A stretch of 64,000 nucleotides of DNA from Hirschia maritima DSM 19733. GTDB lineage: Bacteria; Pseudomonadota; Alphaproteobacteria; Caulobacterales; Hyphomonadaceae. Position 1 is the stretch's first letter. Every line of letters begins with the position of its first letter. The position numbers and the translations under genes were made by a program. This document shows, in pieces, positions 33,328 to 41,441 of this stretch. The notes below the pieces were generated by a model. The model had not been told where the DNA came from. It saw only the letters and a list, made by a program, of their open reading frames with translations, and searched no databases. The DNA lies in assembly GCF_000378345.1 (NCBI RefSeq), contig NZ_KB899544.1, positions 62,001 to 126,000 on the forward strand, read 5' to 3'.

Positions 33328-36300
33328 ATGAAGAAAATTAATAGAGGTGGAGTAGGGCAATTTCAGTTGCAGTTCGGGGCATCTTTGATTGCGCTATCAA
33401 CTGTATTGTCTGCACCAGCAATGGCGCAAGATGTTGCAGAAGCAGCTGAAGACACTAAAACTTTGGATACTATTGTTGTAACAGGTATCCGTCAGGCTCT
33501 TACAGACGGTATGAACGTCAAGCGTAAATCGAATGGTGTTGTTGATGCCATTAACGCAGAAGATATTGGTAAGTTTCCTGATTCAAACCTAGCTGAATCA
33601 TTGCAGCGAATTCCAGGTGTATCTATCAACCGCCAAAACGGAGAGGGTTCTCAAATCACGGTGCGTGGTTTTGGGCCAGGCTTTAATGCTGTAACTCTAA
33701 ATGGTCGTTCAATGCCGACTGCTGACATTCCACTGATTGGTGGTAACGGAAGCGGAACTGGTGGTTCTAGTCGTGCGTTCGATTTTTCTAACTTGGCTGC
33801 TGAGAGTGTAAGTGCACTGGAGGTTACTAAAACGGGGCGTGCTGATGTTGCATCTGGCGGTATCGGAGCAACAGTAAATGTTGTTACAGCAAGACCTCTT
33901 GATTCTGATGGGTTGGTCGCCTCTGTGGGTGTTAAGGGTGTTGTAGACACATCTGTAGACACTGGCGATGAAATTACACCTGAACTGAATGGTATTGTCA
34001 GCTGGTCAAACGAAGCTGGCACATTTGGTGTGGGTGTAACAGGGAGCTATTCGAAGCGCGACAGTGCGGCTCCAAGTGTTGAATCTGCTAGCTGGAACAT
34101 TGAGGATATTGATTCATTCCTTGATCCTGCGAATGGTCGTGTAACTGCTGCTACAAATGTTGTGAACGCTCCTTCATCAGGGAACATTGCACTGCCGCGT
34201 GATAGTCGTGCAAACTTCTCTGAGTTCTCAAGTGAGAGAATTAACGGTCAAATAGTCATGCAGTTTGCTCCAACGGAACGTTTGGAAATGACAGCTGACT
34301 ACACGTTCGCAACGAATGAAGGTGAAGAAAACCGCACGCAGGTTTCAAACTGGTTCAGTCGTCCTTTTTCAGAAGTAATCTTTGATGACAGTCCTGTTCC
34401 GACTACTGTTGGTTTGACAGAAGTCATTTCGGGAACAAAAGACTGGGCGCTTCAGCAAACAACTCGCGCCACTAAGGATGAGCTTCAGTCATTTGGTTTT
34501 AACACAAAATTCCAAGCTACTGATAATTTTGAAATCGTTTTTGATGCTCACACATCTGAAGCAGAAGTAACTCCAAACGGAATTAGTATCGTTGCTAACG
34601 ACGGTCAAACACACCAACTTTCAGAAGTTAATGTTGGTATGGCTTGGCCAATTGTTGTGTCTCACTCGGTTGATTACTCAGGTGATGCGCCAATTCAAAC
34701 ACTAATTGATGCTCAAGATACTGCTATTTCAAATGACGGTGTGTTTGACCGTTATGATGTTGCTACAAACATCGCGAACGGTATCCGTTCGGTATCTCAG
34801 AAGAACGAAATCGACCAGTTCGACCTTCGTGCAAATTGGGATCTGGATGACATGTCTCGTTTGACTGTTGGTGCAAATTATCGCACGCAGTCTAACAGAA
34901 CTACAAACGCAACATTCCAGCAAACATTGGGTAACTGGGGGCTGGCAAACCCAGGTGATGTTCAAGCGATTGCTCCGGATGCGCTTGAAGAATTCTGTTT
35001 GTCTTGTCAGTTTGATGACTACAATGTTGGTGATTTGCAGGGTGTTCGTGGCGATGCGGCAACTTTGTTCCAAGCTATTTCTTCAGCTTACATCAATAAC
35101 AATATTCCGGGTTACACTGGTGCCGTGTTTGCTAGCGACACATCTATTCGTCCGCAGGGGTCAGCTGATGACACTGTAGAAGAAGATGTGCTGTCTTTAT
35201 ATGCGCAATTCTCCACAGAGTTTGAAGTGGCGAACCGTCCTGCGTATCTAAATGTTGGTCTGCGCTATGAAGATACAGAAGTAACGGCTAAAACTGCTAC
35301 TGTGCCGCCTTCACAGCTTATCTGGACAGGTAACAACGACTTCACATTGGCGATTGGCTCTGGTGATGGTCTGACTCTGCAATCTTCATACGACAACTGG
35401 TTGCCGAATGTTGATTTTGCAGTAGACATTACTGACTCTCTAAAAGCACGTGCGTCTTACTCCAAGACAATTGCGCGCACAGCATACAACAACTTGTTTG
35501 CTTCAGATGCACTTCAGGGAACTCCAGCTGGTCCAACTGCATTCGACAACATTGCGAGTGCGACACAAGGTGACCCAGGTCTCCTACCGCTCGAGTCAGA
35601 CAACTTTGATCTATCCGTTGAATATTACTTCGGTGAATCAAGTTATGTATCTGTAGGTATCTTTGAAAAAGTTGTGCGTAACTTTGTTGGTACTGAAACT
35701 TACGAAGGCAACCTATTCGGTCTTCGTGACGCTACGACAGATGATGCAGGAACACGAACAGGTATAGCACGTGGGCTTCTAGACACCGTTGGAGCTGATC
35801 CAAACGACAACAACTTGTTCGCAATGGCTGTTTTCGTTGATCAAAACCCTGGTGACACAGCTGCTGCAGTTGCTGCATTCCAAGCAGTTCAAGGTGCAGA
35901 TGGAAACATCATTACAAGTGAATACGACAATATTGAAACATTGTATGATCTTGTACCAAATGCTGATGACCCGCTTTATGTGTTTGACATCAACAGACCT
36001 GTGAACAACGAGCAGGCCACTATCAACGGTATTGAAATTCAAGGTCAGCACTTCTTTGGTGATACTGGTTTTGGTATCATGGGTAGCTATACTCTAGTTG
36101 AAGGTGATGTTGGATATGACGTAACTGGTGACCCATCTGCGTCCCAATTTGCCCTGACTGGTCTAAGTGATACTGCTAACTTGACATTTATCTATGAGAA
36201 CTACGGTTTCTCTGGTCGTCTTGCTTATAACTGGCGTGATGAGTTCTTGCTGAATGCAAATGCTGGTGGTGGTTTCAACAACCCAGTATTCGTAGAAGCT

Positions 36301-36477
36301 TATGGCCAGGTAGATGCCAGTCTGAACTATGATTTGACAGACAATATTGCTCTGTCTCTTGACGCAATTAACCTGACTGGAGAAAGCTCACGTTGGTTTG
36401 GTCGCTCAACAACAAACCTATGGTTTGCTCGTGAGAGTTCACCGCGTTACTATCTAGGTGCACGCTATAAGTTCTAG
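33328..36477 (+). CDS. TonB-dependent receptor (Xanthomonas/Caulobacter type)
   Basis: A 1049-residue outer-membrane receptor. The signal peptide runs to PAMAQ-DVAEA; TonB-box region KTLDTIVVTGIRQAL; plug with ESLQRIPGVSINRQNGEG and ITVRGFGPGFNAVTLNGRSMP; then a 22-strand-type barrel ending YYLGARYKF with a terminal Phe. The opening and length match the subgroup whose genes in Caulobacterales and Xanthomonadales neighbour tryptophan-halogenase-like genes. Its cargo is unknown; the LacI-like operators upstream favour a sugar. It does not form a tight operon with the genes behind it, since a terminator lies in the 139-base gap. Confidence 0.93.
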   Translation: MKKINRGGVGQFQLQFGASLIALSTVLSAPAMAQDVAEAAEDTKTLDTIVVTGIRQALTDGMNVKRKSNGVVDAINAEDIGKFPDSNLAESLQRIPGVSINRQNGEGSQITVRGFGPGFNAVTLNGRSMPTADIPLIGGNGSGTGGSSRAFDFSNLAAESVSALEVTKTGRADVASGGIGATVNVVTARPLDSDGLVASVGVKGVVDTSVDTGDEITPELNGIVSWSNEAGTFGVGVTGSYSKRDSAAPSVESASWNIEDIDSFLDPANGRVTAATNVVNAPSSGNIALPRDSRANFSEFSSERINGQIVMQFAPTERLEMTADYTFATNEGEENRTQVSNWFSRPFSEVIFDDSPVPTTVGLTEVISGTKDWALQQTTRATKDELQSFGFNTKFQATDNFEIVFDAHTSEAEVTPNGISIVANDGQTHQLSEVNVGMAWPIVVSHSVDYSGDAPIQTLIDAQDTAISNDGVFDRYDVATNIANGIRSVSQKNEIDQFDLRANWDLDDMSRLTVGANYRTQSNRTTNATFQQTLGNWGLANPGDVQAIAPDALEEFCLSCQFDDYNVGDLQGVRGDAATLFQAISSAYINNNIPGYTGAVFASDTSIRPQGSADDTVEEDVLSLYAQFSTEFEVANRPAYLNVGLRYEDTEVTAKTATVPPSQLIWTGNNDFTLAIGSGDGLTLQSSYDNWLPNVDFAVDITDSLKARASYSKTIARTAYNNLFASDALQGTPAGPTAFDNIASATQGDPGLLPLESDNFDLSVEYYFGESSYVSVGIFEKVVRNFVGTETYEGNLFGLRDATTDDAGTRTGIARGLLDTVGADPNDNNLFAMAVFVDQNPGDTAAAVAAFQAVQGADGNIITSEYDNIETLYDLVPNADDPLYVFDINRPVNNEQATINGIEIQGQHFFGDTGFGIMGSYTLVEGDVGYDVTGDPSASQFALTGLSDTANLTFIYENYGFSGRLAYNWRDEFLLNANAGGGFNNPVFVEAYGQVDASLNYDLTDNIALSLDAINLTGESSRWFGRSTTNLWFARESSPRYYLGARYKF

Positions 36478-36496: not shown

Positions 36497-36530
36497 AAGG
36501 GGCTACATTCTGTGTGGCCCCTTTTTTTCT
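36497..36530 (+). terminator. Terminator/attenuator between receptor and SapC gene
   Basis: AAGGGGC (36497-36503) pairs with GCCCCTT (36517-36523), extended by G-U and A-U pairs (GGCTAC with GTGGCC), and is followed by a run of T up to 36528. It should make receptor mRNA more abundant than the four downstream genes. Confidence 0.8.
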
Positions 36531-36616
36531 TTAAGCTATTGCGGATTAGGCACTTAGGTGCGTTGATAGTGAAGTCGTATCTGACTTTAAATAATGAATT
36601 TTGGTGGGATCTAACC

Positions 36617-37348
36617 ATGTCTAAAATTGTTGTTCTGGATAATGTTGAACACAAGGATTTAAAGGTTCAAATTCATCACAGCGAAGAGTTCGGTGATAAC
36701 ATTAATCAGGCGCTTGTTTTTCCCACAGAATTTATGGAATTGCAGCGTGAGTACCCAATATTTTTCCGCAAATCCCCTGAGGGAGATTTTTACGCGGTTG
36801 TGTTGCTGGGGTTGGACCGAGAAGAGAATTTATTCTTGAATTCAGACGGATGGCAGGCTCGTTATGTGCCGGCTATTCAGGATCGTGGACCTTTTTCTAT
36901 TGCTTTACATGAGCGGCAAATAGACGGAGTGCGTCATGTGGAACCCATAATAAATATTGATTTAGAGCATCCGCGGTTGAATGGGGATATTGGTGAAAAT
37001 GTCTTTCTTCCACAGGGAGGTAACTCTCCATATCTTCAGCAGGTTTCTCAAGTTCTTCAGCGGATCCATGTTGGTGCAAACGCCGCAAAAGCGTTTTTCT
37101 CAGAATTGGACGCGTTGGGTTTGATCGAGCCCATTGCATTGGATATCAGTTTGTCTGATACGGCAAAATATACCGTGCCTGATGTGTTCACCATCAGCAA
37201 AGAAAAGATGATTTCATTGAGCGGCAACGATTTAGCTAAACTGAATTCGCTAGGGCTATTGGAGCATTGTTTCGCAGTGATGTCTTCGGCGGGGAATGTG
37301 TCTCGCCTTATAGAACTTAAAACTATTAAAAACGCTCAAACTGTATAG
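36617..37348 (+). CDS. SapC family protein
   Basis: A 243-residue protein. The start at 36617 (MSKIVVLDNVEHKDLKV) has GGTGGGA upstream; a longer frame begins inside the terminator and is not used. FPTEFMELQREYPIFFRKSPEGDFYAVVLLGLDREENLF and the GWQARYVPAIQDRGPFSI segment are characteristic of the SapC family (PF07277). SapC was named as a Campylobacter surface-layer protein factor, but homologues in Caulobacterales regularly follow TonB receptors and lie with halogenases. No signal peptide is present, so it appears to be cytoplasmic. Function unknown. Confidence 0.87.
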   Translation: MSKIVVLDNVEHKDLKVQIHHSEEFGDNINQALVFPTEFMELQREYPIFFRKSPEGDFYAVVLLGLDREENLFLNSDGWQARYVPAIQDRGPFSIALHERQIDGVRHVEPIINIDLEHPRLNGDIGENVFLPQGGNSPYLQQVSQVLQRIHVGANAAKAFFSELDALGLIEPIALDISLSDTAKYTVPDVFTISKEKMISLSGNDLAKLNSLGLLEHCFAVMSSAGNVSRLIELKTIKNAQTV

Positions 37349-37361
37349 TTGGAGGAGTGTT

Positions 37362-38402
37362 TTGGTTGAGAGCTTAGAAATTACACGTAAAACGGAGGTC
37401 ATCGAAGGGGCCTCACTTTCTGATGTCGATTTTCAATCTCTAATCAAAAATGCTAAGCCAGTCATTTTAAAGGGCATAATGGAGCACACGCCTATATGCC
37501 AAAAAGCCAAGAGCTCTGCCAAAGATGTCATGTCTTTTTTGCTCGATCATTATAATGGTAGACCAGTTACAAGATTTGTCGCTGAACCTGAAATAGGCGG
37601 GCGCTTTTTTTACAATTGGGATATATCTGGTTTTAATTACAAGTCCGACACGATTGACCTAGGTGAGGCTTTCTCGCAGATGGAGCAACTCCAGCCGACG
37701 AATGAAACAAAAGCGCAATATATTGGGTCAACGAGTATTGATGGTTTTTTTTCAGATCTGATGACTGAAGCTGAACTTATTATTTCAGAAAAGCTTTTCG
37801 AACAATTCAAATTACACGTCAGCATATGGATGGGCAATGAGACCACTGCGGCAGCACATTACGATTTTTCGAACAATATTGCTGCTTGTTTAGCAGGGCG
37901 TCGTCGTTTTACTTTGTTTCCTCCTGATCAAACTGCAAACCTTTATCCAGGCCCCTTAGAGCCTACGCCCGGTGGGCAAGTGGTTAGTATGGTGAATTTT
38001 CAGGAGCCGGATTTTGAAGCGCATCCAAATTTTGAAAAAGCGGTGCAGGTTGGTGAGATCGCTGAGCTAGGAGCGGGTGATGTACTCGTATACCCTGCAA
38101 TGTGGTGGCATCAAGTAGAGGCGTTAGACCCGTTCAATGTGCTGGTTAATTACTGGTGGAATGAAGTGGCTTCTTTTATCGATGACCCCGTGAATATGCT
38201 TTATCAAGGAATGTTGTCCCTACGAGATCGGCCAGATTATGAAAAGGAAGCCTGGCGAGAATTGCTCGATTACTATGTATTTGGCGATGCAAACCTTCCT
38301 CGTCAGCATTTGCCTAAGCACGCTCAAGGCCCTTTGGCACCGTTGGATGACCTTAATGCACGCAGGTTACGTGCGCGGTTGTTGCAGCGATTAAATAGAT
38401 AG
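37362..38402 (+). CDS. Cupin-like (JmjC/Cupin_8) Fe(II)/2-oxoglutarate oxygenase-like protein
   Basis: A 346-residue cytoplasmic protein. TTG 37362 is the likely start, five bases after GGAGGA. The core is a cupin fold with HYD (His166, Asp168) in AAAHYDFSNNIAACLAGRRR, and a distal His250 in YPAMWWHQVEAL, the HxD...H iron triad. RRRFTLFPPDQTANLYPGP is typical of Cupin_8 asparaginyl/lysyl hydroxylase-like enzymes. It could oxidise a peptide or a small molecule. Gene order SapC-cupin-halogenase-halogenase recurs in relatives, so it probably works in the same process as its neighbours. Substrate unknown. Confidence 0.87.
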   Translation: MVESLEITRKTEVIEGASLSDVDFQSLIKNAKPVILKGIMEHTPICQKAKSSAKDVMSFLLDHYNGRPVTRFVAEPEIGGRFFYNWDISGFNYKSDTIDLGEAFSQMEQLQPTNETKAQYIGSTSIDGFFSDLMTEAELIISEKLFEQFKLHVSIWMGNETTAAAHYDFSNNIAACLAGRRRFTLFPPDQTANLYPGPLEPTPGGQVVSMVNFQEPDFEAHPNFEKAVQVGEIAELGAGDVLVYPAMWWHQVEALDPFNVLVNYWWNEVASFIDDPVNMLYQGMLSLRDRPDYEKEAWRELLDYYVFGDANLPRQHLPKHAQGPLAPLDDLNARRLRARLLQRLNR

Positions 38403-38428: not shown

Positions 38429-39919
38429 ATGGAGCAGAAGGTAAAAAAGGTGGTTATTGCTGGCGGTGGAACTGCTGGTTGGGTTGCTGCTGCAATGCTC
38501 TCTGGTCAGTTGGGGAAATTGCTCGATGTGACTTTGGTCGAGTCTGAAGCAATTGGAACTGTGGGAGTCGGCGAAGCTACAATTCCTACCCACAAAGCTT
38601 ATCATCGACTATTGGGCATAAACGAACAAGATTTCATGCGCGCGACGAGGGCCACCTTCAAGTTAGGCATTGCTTTTGAAAACTGGGGTAAATTGGGCGA
38701 TCGTTATTTTCACTCATTTGGAAGTATAGGCCCTTCCACATGGATGACGGATTTTCAGCACATGTGGTATCAGGCGCGCTCGGAAGGGTGGGCTGGTGAG
38801 ATGGATGATTATTGCTTTGAACTCCAAGCGGCTGAAGCTGGAAAGTTTGCCACATCAGAACAATCAAATCTCAATTATGCATACCATTTAGATGCCAGCC
38901 TCTATGCGCAGTTTTTGCGTCGGTATAGTGAACAAAAAGGTGCAAAGCGTATTGAAGGCAAAATCTCCAATGTCACACTTGCTCCCGAGACTGGAGACAT
39001 TAGCTCTCTGCAATTAGAAGACGGGCAAGTAATAGAAGGTGATCTGTTTATAGATTGTACCGGGTTTAGAGCGCTTTTAATCGATAAGGCGCTTGGCGTG
39101 GGGTATGAAGATTGGAGTGATCACCTGCCGATGAATAGTGCTTTGGCTGTTCAAACAAAGGTGTCTCAAGAAATTGTGCCCTATACGCGTTCAATTGCGC
39201 GTAAAGCTGGCTGGCAGTGGCGTATTCCACTTCAACACAGGGTTGGAAATGGTCACGTATATTGTAGTGATTTTATGAGTGATGATGAGGCTCATTCCAT
39301 TCTAATGGATAACATTGAAGGGGAACTGGTTTCAGAGCCACGTCCTATTCGATTTGTAACGGGTCGTCGTAAAGAGTGTTGGACTAAAAACTGTATTGCA
39401 CTCGGCCTTTCGAGTGGGTTTCTTGAACCATTGGAATCTACAAGTATTCACTTGTTCCAGATCGGCGTGACTCGCCTTGTTCAAATGTTTCCGTTTGGTG
39501 GCGCAAATGATGCTTTACGTAATCAGTACAATCGCTATGCGAGAGAAGAACTTGAAAGTATTCGGGACTTTTTAATTCTTCACTACAAGCTTAATCAGCG
39601 TACAGATTCAGATTTTTGGAAACAGCGCGCAGAAATGGATATTCCAGAATCTCTTCAGCATCGAATTGACCTGTATACGAAAAATGGAATTGCCTTCCAG
39701 GAAGGGTTGGATTTATTCCGAATAGATTCTTGGTTGCAGGTATTTAGGGGGCAAGGATTGGAGAGTAATGGGTATCATCTTGTTGGGCAAATGTTGCCAA
39801 ACGGGCAGCTAAAACAGGCGATGACCGACCTTAAGCAAAACATCGTAAAAAACGTTTCGAATATGCCAAAGCACAGTGATTTCATCAGGCAATATTGTGG
39901 AATAGATAATGTCCAGTAG
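38429..39919 (+). CDS. Flavin-dependent tryptophan halogenase family protein
   Basis: A 496-residue FAD-binding protein. The N-terminal GGGTAGW dinucleotide motif, GVGEATIPT, the catalytic lysine Lys78 in TFKLGIAFENW (PrnA Lys79), and FLEPLESTSIH with the catalytic Glu match flavin-dependent halogenases. The WxWxIP signature that separates halogenases from monooxygenases is intact (GWQWRIP). Such enzymes use FADH2, O2 and halide to make hypohalous acid and halogenate an indole or similar ring; a flavin reductase would be required from elsewhere. The gene is part of the receptor cassette and not of a secondary-metabolite cluster, so a free tryptophan substrate is not assured. It overlaps the second halogenase gene by 11 bases. 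Confidence 0.9.
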   Translation: MEQKVKKVVIAGGGTAGWVAAAMLSGQLGKLLDVTLVESEAIGTVGVGEATIPTHKAYHRLLGINEQDFMRATRATFKLGIAFENWGKLGDRYFHSFGSIGPSTWMTDFQHMWYQARSEGWAGEMDDYCFELQAAEAGKFATSEQSNLNYAYHLDASLYAQFLRRYSEQKGAKRIEGKISNVTLAPETGDISSLQLEDGQVIEGDLFIDCTGFRALLIDKALGVGYEDWSDHLPMNSALAVQTKVSQEIVPYTRSIARKAGWQWRIPLQHRVGNGHVYCSDFMSDDEAHSILMDNIEGELVSEPRPIRFVTGRRKECWTKNCIALGLSSGFLEPLESTSIHLFQIGVTRLVQMFPFGGANDALRNQYNRYAREELESIRDFLILHYKLNQRTDSDFWKQRAEMDIPESLQHRIDLYTKNGIAFQEGLDLFRIDSWLQVFRGQGLESNGYHLVGQMLPNGQLKQAMTDLKQNIVKNVSNMPKHSDFIRQYCGIDNVQ

Positions 39920-41441
39920 GCCGATTAAGTCTGTCTTGATTGTTGGGGGAGGTACGGCTGGTTGGCTGACCGCTGCTATTCTAGCAAGCAAGCATAAATC
40001 GGAAGGTGAGAGTGGATTAAAAATCACTCTAATTGAAGCTTCCGACATTCCGATAATAGGAGTGGGTGAGGGCACTTGGCCGGGAATGAAGGCTACTTTG
40101 CGCAATGCCGGAATTGATGAAAACGAATTTTTGCGAGAATGTCAGGCGTCTTTTAAGCAAGCATCCAAATTTGTAGGATGGAAAGATGGCAGCGCAGACG
40201 ATTTCTACTATCACCCCTTCGAGTTGCCTGAGGGGTTTTATCAGGGAAATCTGGCTCAATATTGGGTGGATGCTGGCAAGACAGATACTTTCTCATCAAT
40301 TGCATGTGCGCAGGAAGCGGTTTGTGAGAAGCATTTATCCCCGAAGCTTATAACAACGCCTCAATATGGTGGGGCGCTGAATTATGGATACCATTTGGAT
40401 GCCGGAAAATTTTCTGGGTTTCTAAGACAACATTGCACACAAAAAATGGGCGTGAATCTTGTTTTGGATAAGGTTCTTAATGTGCGATTTCGTGAGAACG
40501 GAGATATTGAAGCCGTTACTACGGAAAACAATGGCGATATCGATGCTGACTTGTTTGTGGATTGCACAGGGTTTCGGTCATTATTGTTGGGACAACACTT
40601 AGGTGTTGAGTTTAAAGACAAAAGCGCTGAAATGCCGATAAACTCTGCTTTGGCTGTTCAAGTGCCTTATCAAGAGAATGAGCCTATTCAATCTGCGACA
40701 ATATCCACCGCACAGGAAGCTGGTTGGGTTTGGGATATTGGTTTGTACAATCGTCGCGGTGTTGGGCATGTATACAGCTCCAACCATGTTTCTGATGAGG
40801 AAGCTGCGCGGCAATTGCAAAAATATTTGGGTGTAACAGAGGTTGAATTCTCTGATTTAACACCAAGAAAAATTGATATAAATCCGGGATATCGAGAGAA
40901 GTTTTGGCATAAAAATTGTGTCGCGATAGGACTGTCAGCAGGATTTTTAGAGCCGTTGGAAGCCTCAGCGATGATGGTGATTGAAGCTTCGGCTGCATTA
41001 TTAGCTGATCACATGCCAGCAAATAGAAGTGCAATGGATTTTATAGCTGATCGGTTCAATAAACGCTTTGGTTTTCGATGGCAGAGAATAATCGATTTTC
41101 TTAAATTGCACTATGTGATGTCCAATCGAGACGGAATGTTTTGGAAGGATAGCGCGGACCCAGCTACAATTTCAGAGAGATTGAAAGCGGATTTGGAGCT
41201 GTGGAAAGCGCAGGTACCTAATAAAGCTGAATTTGATAGTGTGGATGAAGCGTTTCCAACAGCAAGCTATCAATATGTGCTGTATGGAATGGGCTACAAA
41301 ACGGCTCCTCGAGGTGTCGGAGTGTCGCCAGATGAAGAACGTTTTGCTTTATCTGCGTTTTCAAATGTTGAAAGAAACATATCTTTGATGTCTACAAAAT
41401 TGAAAACCAATCGTGAGATATTAGATATAATCAACGGATAG
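39909..41441 (+). CDS. Flavin-dependent tryptophan halogenase family protein, variant motif
   Basis: A 510-residue paralogue of the preceding gene. It has GGGTAGWLTA, GVGEGTWPG (Gly for Ala in the usual GEAT), catalytic Lys83 in SFKQASKFVGW and FLEPLEASAM with the Glu. The WxWxIP signature reads GWVWDIG: the final Pro is Gly. The active-site tunnel and substrate may therefore differ from the first halogenase. It ends the cassette; the following 474 bases are non-coding. The two enzymes may act in sequence or as a pair on one substrate, which is inference. Confidence 0.88.
   Translation: MSSRPIKSVLIVGGGTAGWLTAAILASKHKSEGESGLKITLIEASDIPIIGVGEGTWPGMKATLRNAGIDENEFLRECQASFKQASKFVGWKDGSADDFYYHPFELPEGFYQGNLAQYWVDAGKTDTFSSIACAQEAVCEKHLSPKLITTPQYGGALNYGYHLDAGKFSGFLRQHCTQKMGVNLVLDKVLNVRFRENGDIEAVTTENNGDIDADLFVDCTGFRSLLLGQHLGVEFKDKSAEMPINSALAVQVPYQENEPIQSATISTAQEAGWVWDIGLYNRRGVGHVYSSNHVSDEEAARQLQKYLGVTEVEFSDLTPRKIDINPGYREKFWHKNCVAIGLSAGFLEPLEASAMMVIEASAALLADHMPANRSAMDFIADRFNKRFGFRWQRIIDFLKLHYVMSNRDGMFWKDSADPATISERLKADLELWKAQVPNKAEFDSVDEAFPTASYQYVLYGMGYKTAPRGVGVSPDEERFALSAFSNVERNISLMSTKLKTNREILDIING

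What the first reader, a model, noticed from the sequence alone, without database searches (positions are those of the whole stretch)
39909..41441. Second halogenase has the WxWxIP signature changed to WVWDIG
The signature usually distinguishes halogenases from monooxygenases. The first halogenase keeps it (GWQWRIP); the second has Gly instead of Pro, and Gly in GVGEGT in place of GEAT, while the catalytic Lys83 and the FLEPLE glutamate remain. This suggests altered substrate access or a non-halogenating flavoenzyme paired with a true halogenase.
Basis: partly seen in the sequence, partly recalled or inferred. Interest (0 to 1): 0.5.

Follow-up and report, generated by a model that had tools for sequence, protein, structure and literature searches.

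The report
Halogenase with subfamily-wide altered signature
The second of two neighbouring halogenase-like genes really does carry an altered signature, but this is the normal signature of a large branch of the family, apparently untested in the laboratory, that usually sits beside an outer-membrane uptake receptor, so the change itself is ordinary while the job of that branch remains unknown.

Summary
ORF 39909-41441 (510 aa) has WVWDIG (aa 273-278), GVGEGT (51-56), K83 and FLEPLE (346-351).

It is not an aberrant gene. Of 173 non-redundant aligned family members, 89 share GEGT plus a non-Pro sixth residue (85 Gly) and form one clade (support 0.995). All 89 have WxWD, FKQ and the catalytic Glu. 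Four of this genome's nine halogenases are of this type. So, by signature, is PDB 2pyx (TM 0.97, 47% identity), a structural-genomics entry for which I saw no activity report. Pro is the least conserved of the motif's four named positions (77 of 173); the two Trp are 173 and 168 of 173.

Most of these genes lie beside a TonB-dependent receptor and SapC, about half with an FIH-like Cupin_8 gene. A halogenase with Pro is within 6.5 kb in only 24 of 80 loci, and one genome (99% complete) holds this type alone.

Most likely: an FADH2-dependent halogenase with a different substrate pocket. Halogenation versus oxygenation cannot be decided from sequence, and I found no characterised member. New member of a known kind.

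The parts
39909..41441 (+). PF04820 flavin-dependent halogenase family protein of the GEGT/WxWDIG clade (510 aa)
   Evidence: (Pfam 409 bits)
40059..40076 (+). GVGEGT (aa 51-56), followed by W57-P58; flank of the FAD-binding loop and start of the substrate loop
   Evidence: position of the flanking Glu after PMC7336383 section 13
40155..40157 (+). Catalytic Lys K83 (FKQ context)
40725..40742 (+). WVWDIG (aa 273-278), in place of WxWxIP
40944..40970 (+). FLEPLE-ASA (aa 346-354): catalytic Glu E351 kept; halide-loop residues Ala-Ser-Ala instead of Ser-Thr-Gly/Ser
   Evidence: halide site described in PMC5945002 and PMC7336383
38429..39919 (+). Upstream PF04820 halogenase (496 aa), GEAT/WQWRIP/EPLESTS; closest solved structures 6y1w (Xcc4156, 569 bits), 9luq (508 bits) and 6frl (BrvH, 451 bits)
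37362..38402 (+). Cupin_8 protein (346 aa from a TTG start), similar to FIH and JMJD5
   Evidence: (231 bits)
36617..37348 (+). SapC family protein (PF07277); likely ATG start at 36617 inside the longer ORF 36512-37348
   Evidence: confident model without a PDB match
33328..36477 (+). TonB-dependent receptor of the TIGR01782 (Xanthomonas/Caulobacter) type, 1049 aa
   Evidence: 632 bits for TIGR01782

Best explanation
The gene is an ordinary member of a large, conserved clade of the PF04820 flavin-dependent halogenase family. The clade is marked by co-varying residues: GEGTW in place of GEATI, FKQ in place of FKL, WxWD[I/V]G in place of WxWR-IP, and EPLE-[A/S]-[S/T]-A in place of EPLE-S-T-S/G. 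The clade and its signature are shown by computation. Inferred mechanism: FADH2 supplied by a flavin reductase reacts with O2 and halide; hypohalous acid passes to K83; E351 positions or activates the aromatic substrate; W273 and W275 keep the substrate away from the flavin, as proposed for known family members. The changed residues lie in the substrate, flavin and halide regions, so they probably set a different substrate or halide preference from the WxWxIP partner. The substrate is probably not free tryptophan. It is more likely a larger aromatic or peptide-like molecule tied to the co-encoded TonB-dependent receptor, SapC and FIH-like Cupin_8 protein; this last step is inference from gene order only.
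For: Signature set in 89 non-redundant members: Glu351, both Trp, Asp276 and Gln84 are 89 of 89. Lys was a filter for that set, but no GEGT row among all 92 lacks it. One clade of exactly these 89, support 0.995. Four of nine halogenases of this genome are of this type. Fold: AlphaFold model pLDDT 94.7; TM 0.97 to 2pyx, 0.90 to 9ltb, 0.88-0.91 to PrnA, Thal, PyrH and RebH. The halide site is made of backbone NH, so Thr/Gly to Ser/Ala need not abolish it, and BrvH, with Ser at the Gly place, is a brominating enzyme (PMC5945002 passages). VDEAFPTAS stands where Tar14 has the tryptophan-binding YYHGLPPYS. One PF01613 flavin reductase in the genome. Receptor association: all nine own halogenases lie within 3.5 kb of a TIGR01782 receptor; of 80 loci, 67 have a TBDR on the same strand within 1.5 kb upstream and 76 have SapC within 5 kb; halogenase and TIGR01782 in 120 Pseudomonadota genomes: both 8, halogenase only 1, receptor only 4, neither 107, Fisher P 5e-9.
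Against: No member of the clade has an activity that I could find in print. Fx.Px.Sx.G, said to be (with variants at G) in all active FDHs (PMC8407142 passage), is not kept at canonical spacing (A352, A354). 2pyx, 9ltb and 9lu2 are solved, but I saw no activity data for them. L174, the only halogenase of its genome, has no receptor or SapC within the 14 kb fetched, so the receptor link is not universal; G153 has a full-length halogenase (WTWRVP type) and no TIGR01782 receptor.
Confidence: 0.68

Rival explanations
1. The GEGT/WxWDIG clade are flavin monooxygenases or oxidases that descended from halogenases: the flavin hydroperoxide is used on the substrate directly and halide is no longer needed.
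For: In the clade the loop residue at the place of the motif's Ser is Ala in 79 of 89 and that at the place of its Gly is Ala in 84 of 89; Pro is lost; an invariant Asp follows the second Trp. No published halogenating member found.
Against: Glu351 and both Trp are 89 of 89 and no GEGT row lacks the Lys. The Lys serves HOX handling in known enzymes (PMC7336383 passage); a monooxygenase would not be expected to keep it and the Trp shield. Monooxygenase models (QhpG, UbiH) score far below their cut-offs.
Confidence: 0.22
2. The second halogenase is a specialised partner that acts with the WxWxIP halogenase on the same substrate (for example a second position or second halide). This does not exclude the best explanation; it adds a fixed partnership.
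For: Tandem, overlapping genes in the window; a halogenase with Pro within 6.5 kb in 24 of 80 loci, 22 of them of the WxWxIP kind with GEAT, GEAA or a cut N-terminus.
Against: 56 of 80 loci have no such gene within 6.5 kb (some loci are cut by contig ends). G027 (99% complete) has only the WxWDIG type. In the own genome L014, L016 and L017 show it without another halogenase in the 16-18 kb fetched.
Confidence: 0.25
3. Relaxed or decaying duplicate: the substitutions are drift in a dying copy.
For: Nine paralogues in one genome, and paralogues without the Lys do exist in other genomes.
Against: Intact frame; catalytic residues kept; the same substitutions in alpha-, beta- and gammaproteobacteria (organism titles).
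Confidence: 0.01

Closest known systems
PDB 2pyx, Shewanella frigidimarina 'tryptophan halogenase' (structural genomics, released 2007)
   Same: GEGT, WIWDIG, EPLEASA; 533 bits, 47% identity, TM 0.97
   Different: Nothing notable; by signature it belongs to the same clade (not placed in my trees). Function not reported in what I saw (PMC7336383 calls it an unnamed halogenase, unpublished).
PDB 9ltb (Altererythrobacter sp. S1-5) and 9lu2 (Pseudoalteromonas sp. L11-2), released Feb 2026
   Same: WxWDI-, FKQ, GEG loop; 466 and 449 bits, 43-44% identity
   Different: Ala in place of Gly at the sixth position (WLWDIA, WIWDIA); 9ltb has GEGS. Not placed in my trees; whether a paper describes them is unknown (the search was swamped by another sense of a term)
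BrvH (6frl) and Xcc4156 (6y1w)
   Same: Same family; catalytic Lys; non-Gly residue in the halide loop (Ser, Asn); closest characterised relatives of the upstream partner
   Different: BrvH has WxWxIP; both have AT in place of GT and Thr in the halide loop; [quoted passage not shown]
PrnA / RebH / Thal / PyrH tryptophan halogenases
   Same: Fold (TM about 0.9) and family
   Different: About 30% identity; Pro to Gly, S-T-G to A-S-A, different substrate loops; no Trp4 motif of the Tar14 kind

Membership tests
PF04820 flavin-dependent halogenases | Profile match over curated cut-off | tested here: met
   409 bits against a cut-off of 21
PF04820 flavin-dependent halogenases | GxGxxG FAD-binding motif | tested here: met
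   IVGGGTAGW, aa 11-19
PF04820 flavin-dependent halogenases | Catalytic Lys and Glu (PrnA K79, E346; K79 recalled, E346 in PMC5945002) | tested here: met
   K83 and E351; conserved in the clade
PF04820 flavin-dependent halogenases | WxWxI core of WxWxIP | tested here: met
   WVWDI, aa 273-277; a 2026 preprint's annotation pipeline uses WxWxI, writing the Pro in brackets (PMC12871659 passages)
PF04820 flavin-dependent halogenases | Pro of WxWxIP | tested here: not met
   Gly278; but only 77 of 173 non-redundant members in a set enriched for GEGT have Pro, and 17 of 21 in an evenly drawn sample
PF04820 flavin-dependent halogenases | Fx.Px.Sx.G at canonical spacing | tested here: not met
   F346, P349, A352, A354. 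BrvH has Ser and Xcc4156 Asn at the Gly position (PMC7336383)
PF04820 flavin-dependent halogenases | Halogenase fold | tested here: met
   Predicted model, pLDDT 94.7; TM 0.88-0.97 to solved halogenases
PF04820 flavin-dependent halogenases | Halide-dependent product formation | not testable with these tools
   Needs an assay
Free-tryptophan halogenases (groups A and B of PMC8269204) | Trp1 ATIP/ATVP/ATFS and Trp4 motifs | tested here: not met
   GTWP in place of Trp1; VDEAFPTAS aligned to YYHGLPPYS of Tar14 (motifs). The group A Trp4 motif was not aligned
Flavin monooxygenases of this superfamily (QhpG, UbiH) | Match over the NCBIfam equivalog cut-off | tested here: not met
   QhpG 44 bits against a cut-off of 240; UbiH 19 against 392

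The most novel reading that the evidence does not exclude
The receptor-linked set (TonB-dependent receptor, SapC, FIH/JMJD5-like Cupin_8, WxWxIP halogenase, WxWDIG flavoenzyme) is a dedicated oxidative tailoring module acting on a polypeptide, either the receptor itself or its peptide cargo. In it the WxWDIG enzyme is a chemically distinct halogenase or halogenase-derived oxygenase. An outer-membrane receptor system that halogenates or hydroxylates aromatic side chains would be new to me.
Probability: 0.1. Interest if true: 0.75.

Novelty: new member of a known kind. Interest (0 to 1): 0.27.

Why it matters
A review states that the function of certain residues within WxWxIP remains unclear and suggests engineering of the motif (PMC10696468 passages). 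This clade is a natural experiment: both Trp kept, Pro and halide-loop residues changed, 89 members seen here and probably many more (at least 587 relatives in the scan, signatures of most not read), one solved structure with the same signature and two close ones. One assay of a clade member beside its WxWxIP neighbour would tell whether Pro and the S-T-G loop matter for halogenation. It would also give a handle on what halogenases do in receptor operons; I saw no reported substrate for such a gene.

Tried and rejected
Rejected: the gene as an isolated oddity or decaying copy.

Rejected as a requirement: pairing with a true halogenase.

Tried, inconclusive: the receptor as protein substrate. 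Comparing 93 halogenase- or SapC-adjacent TBDRs with 14 others, the best discriminating column among the aromatic and polar residues scanned was Trp at window-TBDR residue 969: 78 of 93 against 3 of 14. Two of those three (L166, L172) in fact sit in halogenase loci that my 600-bp rule missed, and the third (L075) is a tandem receptor of such a locus; moved over, the two would make it 80 of 95 against 1 of 12. But 7 of the 15 exceptions lie directly beside WxWDIG halogenases and carry Tyr, Gln or Asn, the groups are related, and one column was picked from many. This is a hint, not a case.

Tried, empty: a peptide-sized gene in the operon gaps; only short, unconvincing ORFs were seen and their conservation was not tested. 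Promoter- and terminator-like sites were no more frequent than in shuffles (10 against 17.9, 7 against 8.3). SapC fold search gave no match. No coordinates of the model could be read, so distances around the motif were not measured.

Literature: no held paper has 'halogenase' with 'WxWxIG' or 'WxWxIA'. No listed paper looked like a description of a TBDR-SapC-halogenase operon: one search listed 30 of 154, 14 of 14, 25 of 34, 25 of 126, 30 of 168 (titles and abstract starts only). PMC1790865, PMC5943477 and PMC6952198 do not use the word halogenase in the main text. Papers on Xanthomonas xylan loci that name halogenase- and SapC-related genes are recalled and were not seen, so I claim no novelty for the operon.

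Sampling caveats: the 80 loci were picked with the patterns [IV]GVGEGTW and NY[GA]YHLDA, so GEGT is enriched by design (the W motif and halide loop were not selected on). Of 186 aligned rows, 13 were dropped before the final counts: 6 without the Lys or with a motif gap, 1 short, 6 near-duplicates. In some searches at most 12 and 7 candidates per genome were scored, so gene counts there are lower bounds.
Full report
OBSERVATION. The second ORF runs 39909-41441 (510 aa) and overlaps the end of the first (38429-39919) by 11 bp. It reads GVGEGT at 51-56, K83, WVWDIG at 273-278 and FLEPLE at 346-351. The first reads GEAT, WQWRIP and FLEPLESTS. One point was missed: the halide loop after EPLE is Ala352-Ser353-Ala354. 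Literature places the halide on the backbone NH of Thr359 and Gly360 in RebH (PMC5945002, passages). It describes Fx.Px.Sx.G as a further halogenase motif (PMC7336383, passages and section 13; PMC8407142, passages). At canonical spacing the second enzyme has neither the Ser nor the Gly.

HOW COMMON IS IT. The own genome (3.34 Mb, 10 contigs) has nine full-length PF04820 genes. The signatures of all nine were read: four are GEGT with W[VI]WDIG (this gene and those in L014, L016 and L017), three are WQWRIP, one WAWTIP, one WRWEIQ. Together with own and relatives' loci and a phylum sample, 186 halogenase rows were aligned; 13 were dropped, leaving 173 that are non-redundant at 98%. Conservation over the motif: first Trp 173 of 173, second Trp 168, Ile 162, Pro 77 (Gly 85). 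Eighty-nine carry GEGT and a non-Pro sixth residue (85 Gly, 2 Ala, 1 Ser, 1 Cys). In those 89, both Trp, the Asp after the second Trp, the Gln after the catalytic Lys and the catalytic Glu are each 89 of 89; Trp57 is 88; the last loop residue is Ala in 84. The Lys was a filter of the set, but none of the 92 GEGT rows lacks it. In the other 84 the residue after the Lys is Leu in 72, position 57 is Ile in 63, and the loop keeps Ser in 73 and Thr in 83. The set is enriched for GEGT by the search patterns, so the proportions are not natural frequencies.

EVOLUTION. The 89 form one clade with support 0.995 (earlier versions of the set gave 88 of 88 and 89 of 89). The nearest outside tips are one EGT/WTWDIP sequence (placement support 0.32), then two EAT sequences with WIWDIV and WIWDIA (0.95) and one with WLWDIN (0.94), all three with S-T-G loops. 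So the Asp and the loss of Pro also occur in neighbours that still have GEAT and S-T-G. In an evenly drawn sample of 120 Pseudomonadota genomes (at most 12 candidates scored per genome), eight genomes besides the own hold 23 matches over 100 bits; two lack the Lys and look degenerate; of the other 21, 17 have Pro, two Ala, one Ser, one Gly. Pro is thus not fixed outside the clade either.

STRUCTURE. AlphaFold2 with 54 sequences gave pLDDT 94.7. Best solved matches: 2pyx (TM 0.97, rmsd 1.5, 47% identity), 9ltb, 9lu2, then Thal, PrnA and PyrH at TM about 0.9. 2pyx has WIWDIG, GEGT and EPLEASA. I could not read coordinates, so no distances around the motif were measured.

IS IT A HALOGENASE. For: the catalytic apparatus named in the literature (GxGxxG, Lys, Glu, WxW) is kept and conserved in the clade. 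Against: two of the three recognition motifs are altered in part, and no characterised enzyme with GEGT or WxWxIG was found. The 34 enzymes in Table 1 of PMC8269204 (section 8; one of them, MHal1, was inactive) have AT or ST where this clade has GT. A 2026 preprint writes the motif as WxWxI(P) (PMC12871659, passages). NCBIfam monooxygenase models match only far below cut-off. I put halogenation ahead of oxygenation, but sequence cannot settle it.

CONTEXT. In the window the order is TBDR, SapC, Cupin_8, WxWxIP halogenase, WxWDIG halogenase. The Cupin_8 protein's best solved matches are FIH and JMJD5, known as protein hydroxylases (recalled). All nine own halogenases lie within 3.5 kb of a TIGR01782 receptor, in six loci, five of the nine within 0.2 kb; the genome also has TIGR01782 receptors without a halogenase beside them. 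In the 80 loci: TBDR on the same strand within 1.5 kb upstream 67; SapC within 5 kb 76; Cupin_8 within 6.5 kb 41; a halogenase with Pro within 6.5 kb 24, of which one is the EGT/WTWDIP sister and one a GEGS type. Some loci are cut by contig ends, so these are lower bounds. Of the 14 phylum-sample loci, 13 hold a TBDR, one of them about 2 kb away. Co-occurrence in the 120-genome sample (same handles in both calls): both 8, halogenase over 100 bits only 1 (G153), receptor over cut-off only 4, neither 107; Fisher P 5e-9, not corrected for relatedness, and the own genome is one of the 8. Other own loci of this kind hold GH97 and alpha-amylase, agarase-like, sulfatase or keto-deoxy-galactonokinase genes, as in carbohydrate-uptake loci; the window's operon is flanked by amidohydrolase, GST and chemotaxis genes instead.

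AGAINST THE PAIR IDEA. The own loci L014, L016 and L017 show the WxWDIG type without another halogenase in the 16-18 kb fetched, 56 of 80 loci have no halogenase with Pro within 6.5 kb, and G027 (99% complete, 0% contamination) has one PF04820 match only (17 of 17 candidates scored), L174, of the WxWDIG type, with no receptor or SapC found in the 14 kb fetched.

WORKING MODEL. Shown: clade membership, conserved catalytic residues, predicted fold, gene neighbourhood. Inferred: FADH2-dependent hypohalous-acid chemistry with K83 and E351, Trp shield kept, substrate pocket changed; substrate not free Trp (no Trp4 motif of the Tar14 kind). Speculative: a peptide or receptor-linked substrate, following the proposal for BrvH and Xcc4156 that they may act on peptides (PMC7336383 section 13) and the FIH-like neighbour. 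A direct look for a receptor Trp that tracks the halogenases gave only a leaky correlation.

VERDICT. Real observation, ordinary for its clade.

Noticed in passing
window 36617-37348: The SapC-family protein (PF07277) of the operon gives a very confident model (pLDDT 96.8) but has no PDB relative by sequence (E up to 1) and no fold match by Foldseek (none at E 0.001) or VIA-align (none at Z 2 among the 997 chains aligned). Possibly an unsolved fold.
   Followed up: partly
L157:6041-7528, L160:10035-11531, L113:72-1505, L126:2846-4279 (477-498 aa) and L110:350-1501 (383 aa): Halogenase-like proteins without the catalytic Lys, GEAT or WxW, next to intact halogenases. Those of L113 and L126, from two genomes of one genus, are 49% identical over 470 aa with open frames, so they look like conserved pseudoenzymes.
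   Followed up: partly
window 33328-36477 (residue 969) and relatives: Trp in AYNWRDEFL: 78 of 93 halogenase- or SapC-adjacent receptors against 3 of 14 others, with exceptions directly beside WxWDIG halogenases.
   Followed up: partly
L013, L014, L015, L016, L017 (own genome): Other halogenase-receptor loci of this genome sit among agarase-like, GH97 and amylase, sulfatase or sugar-acid genes, which links these halogenases to polysaccharide uptake loci; L016 has an ECF sigma factor and L017 a FecR-type gene upstream of the receptor.
   Followed up: partly
L015:6568-7245: DUF6445 protein (248 bits) beside a convergent pair of WxWxIP halogenases.
   Followed up: no
L172:4666-5794: About 1.1 kb gap between receptor and WxWDIG halogenase in an otherwise standard TBDR-hal-SapC-Cupin_8-hal locus.
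   Followed up: no
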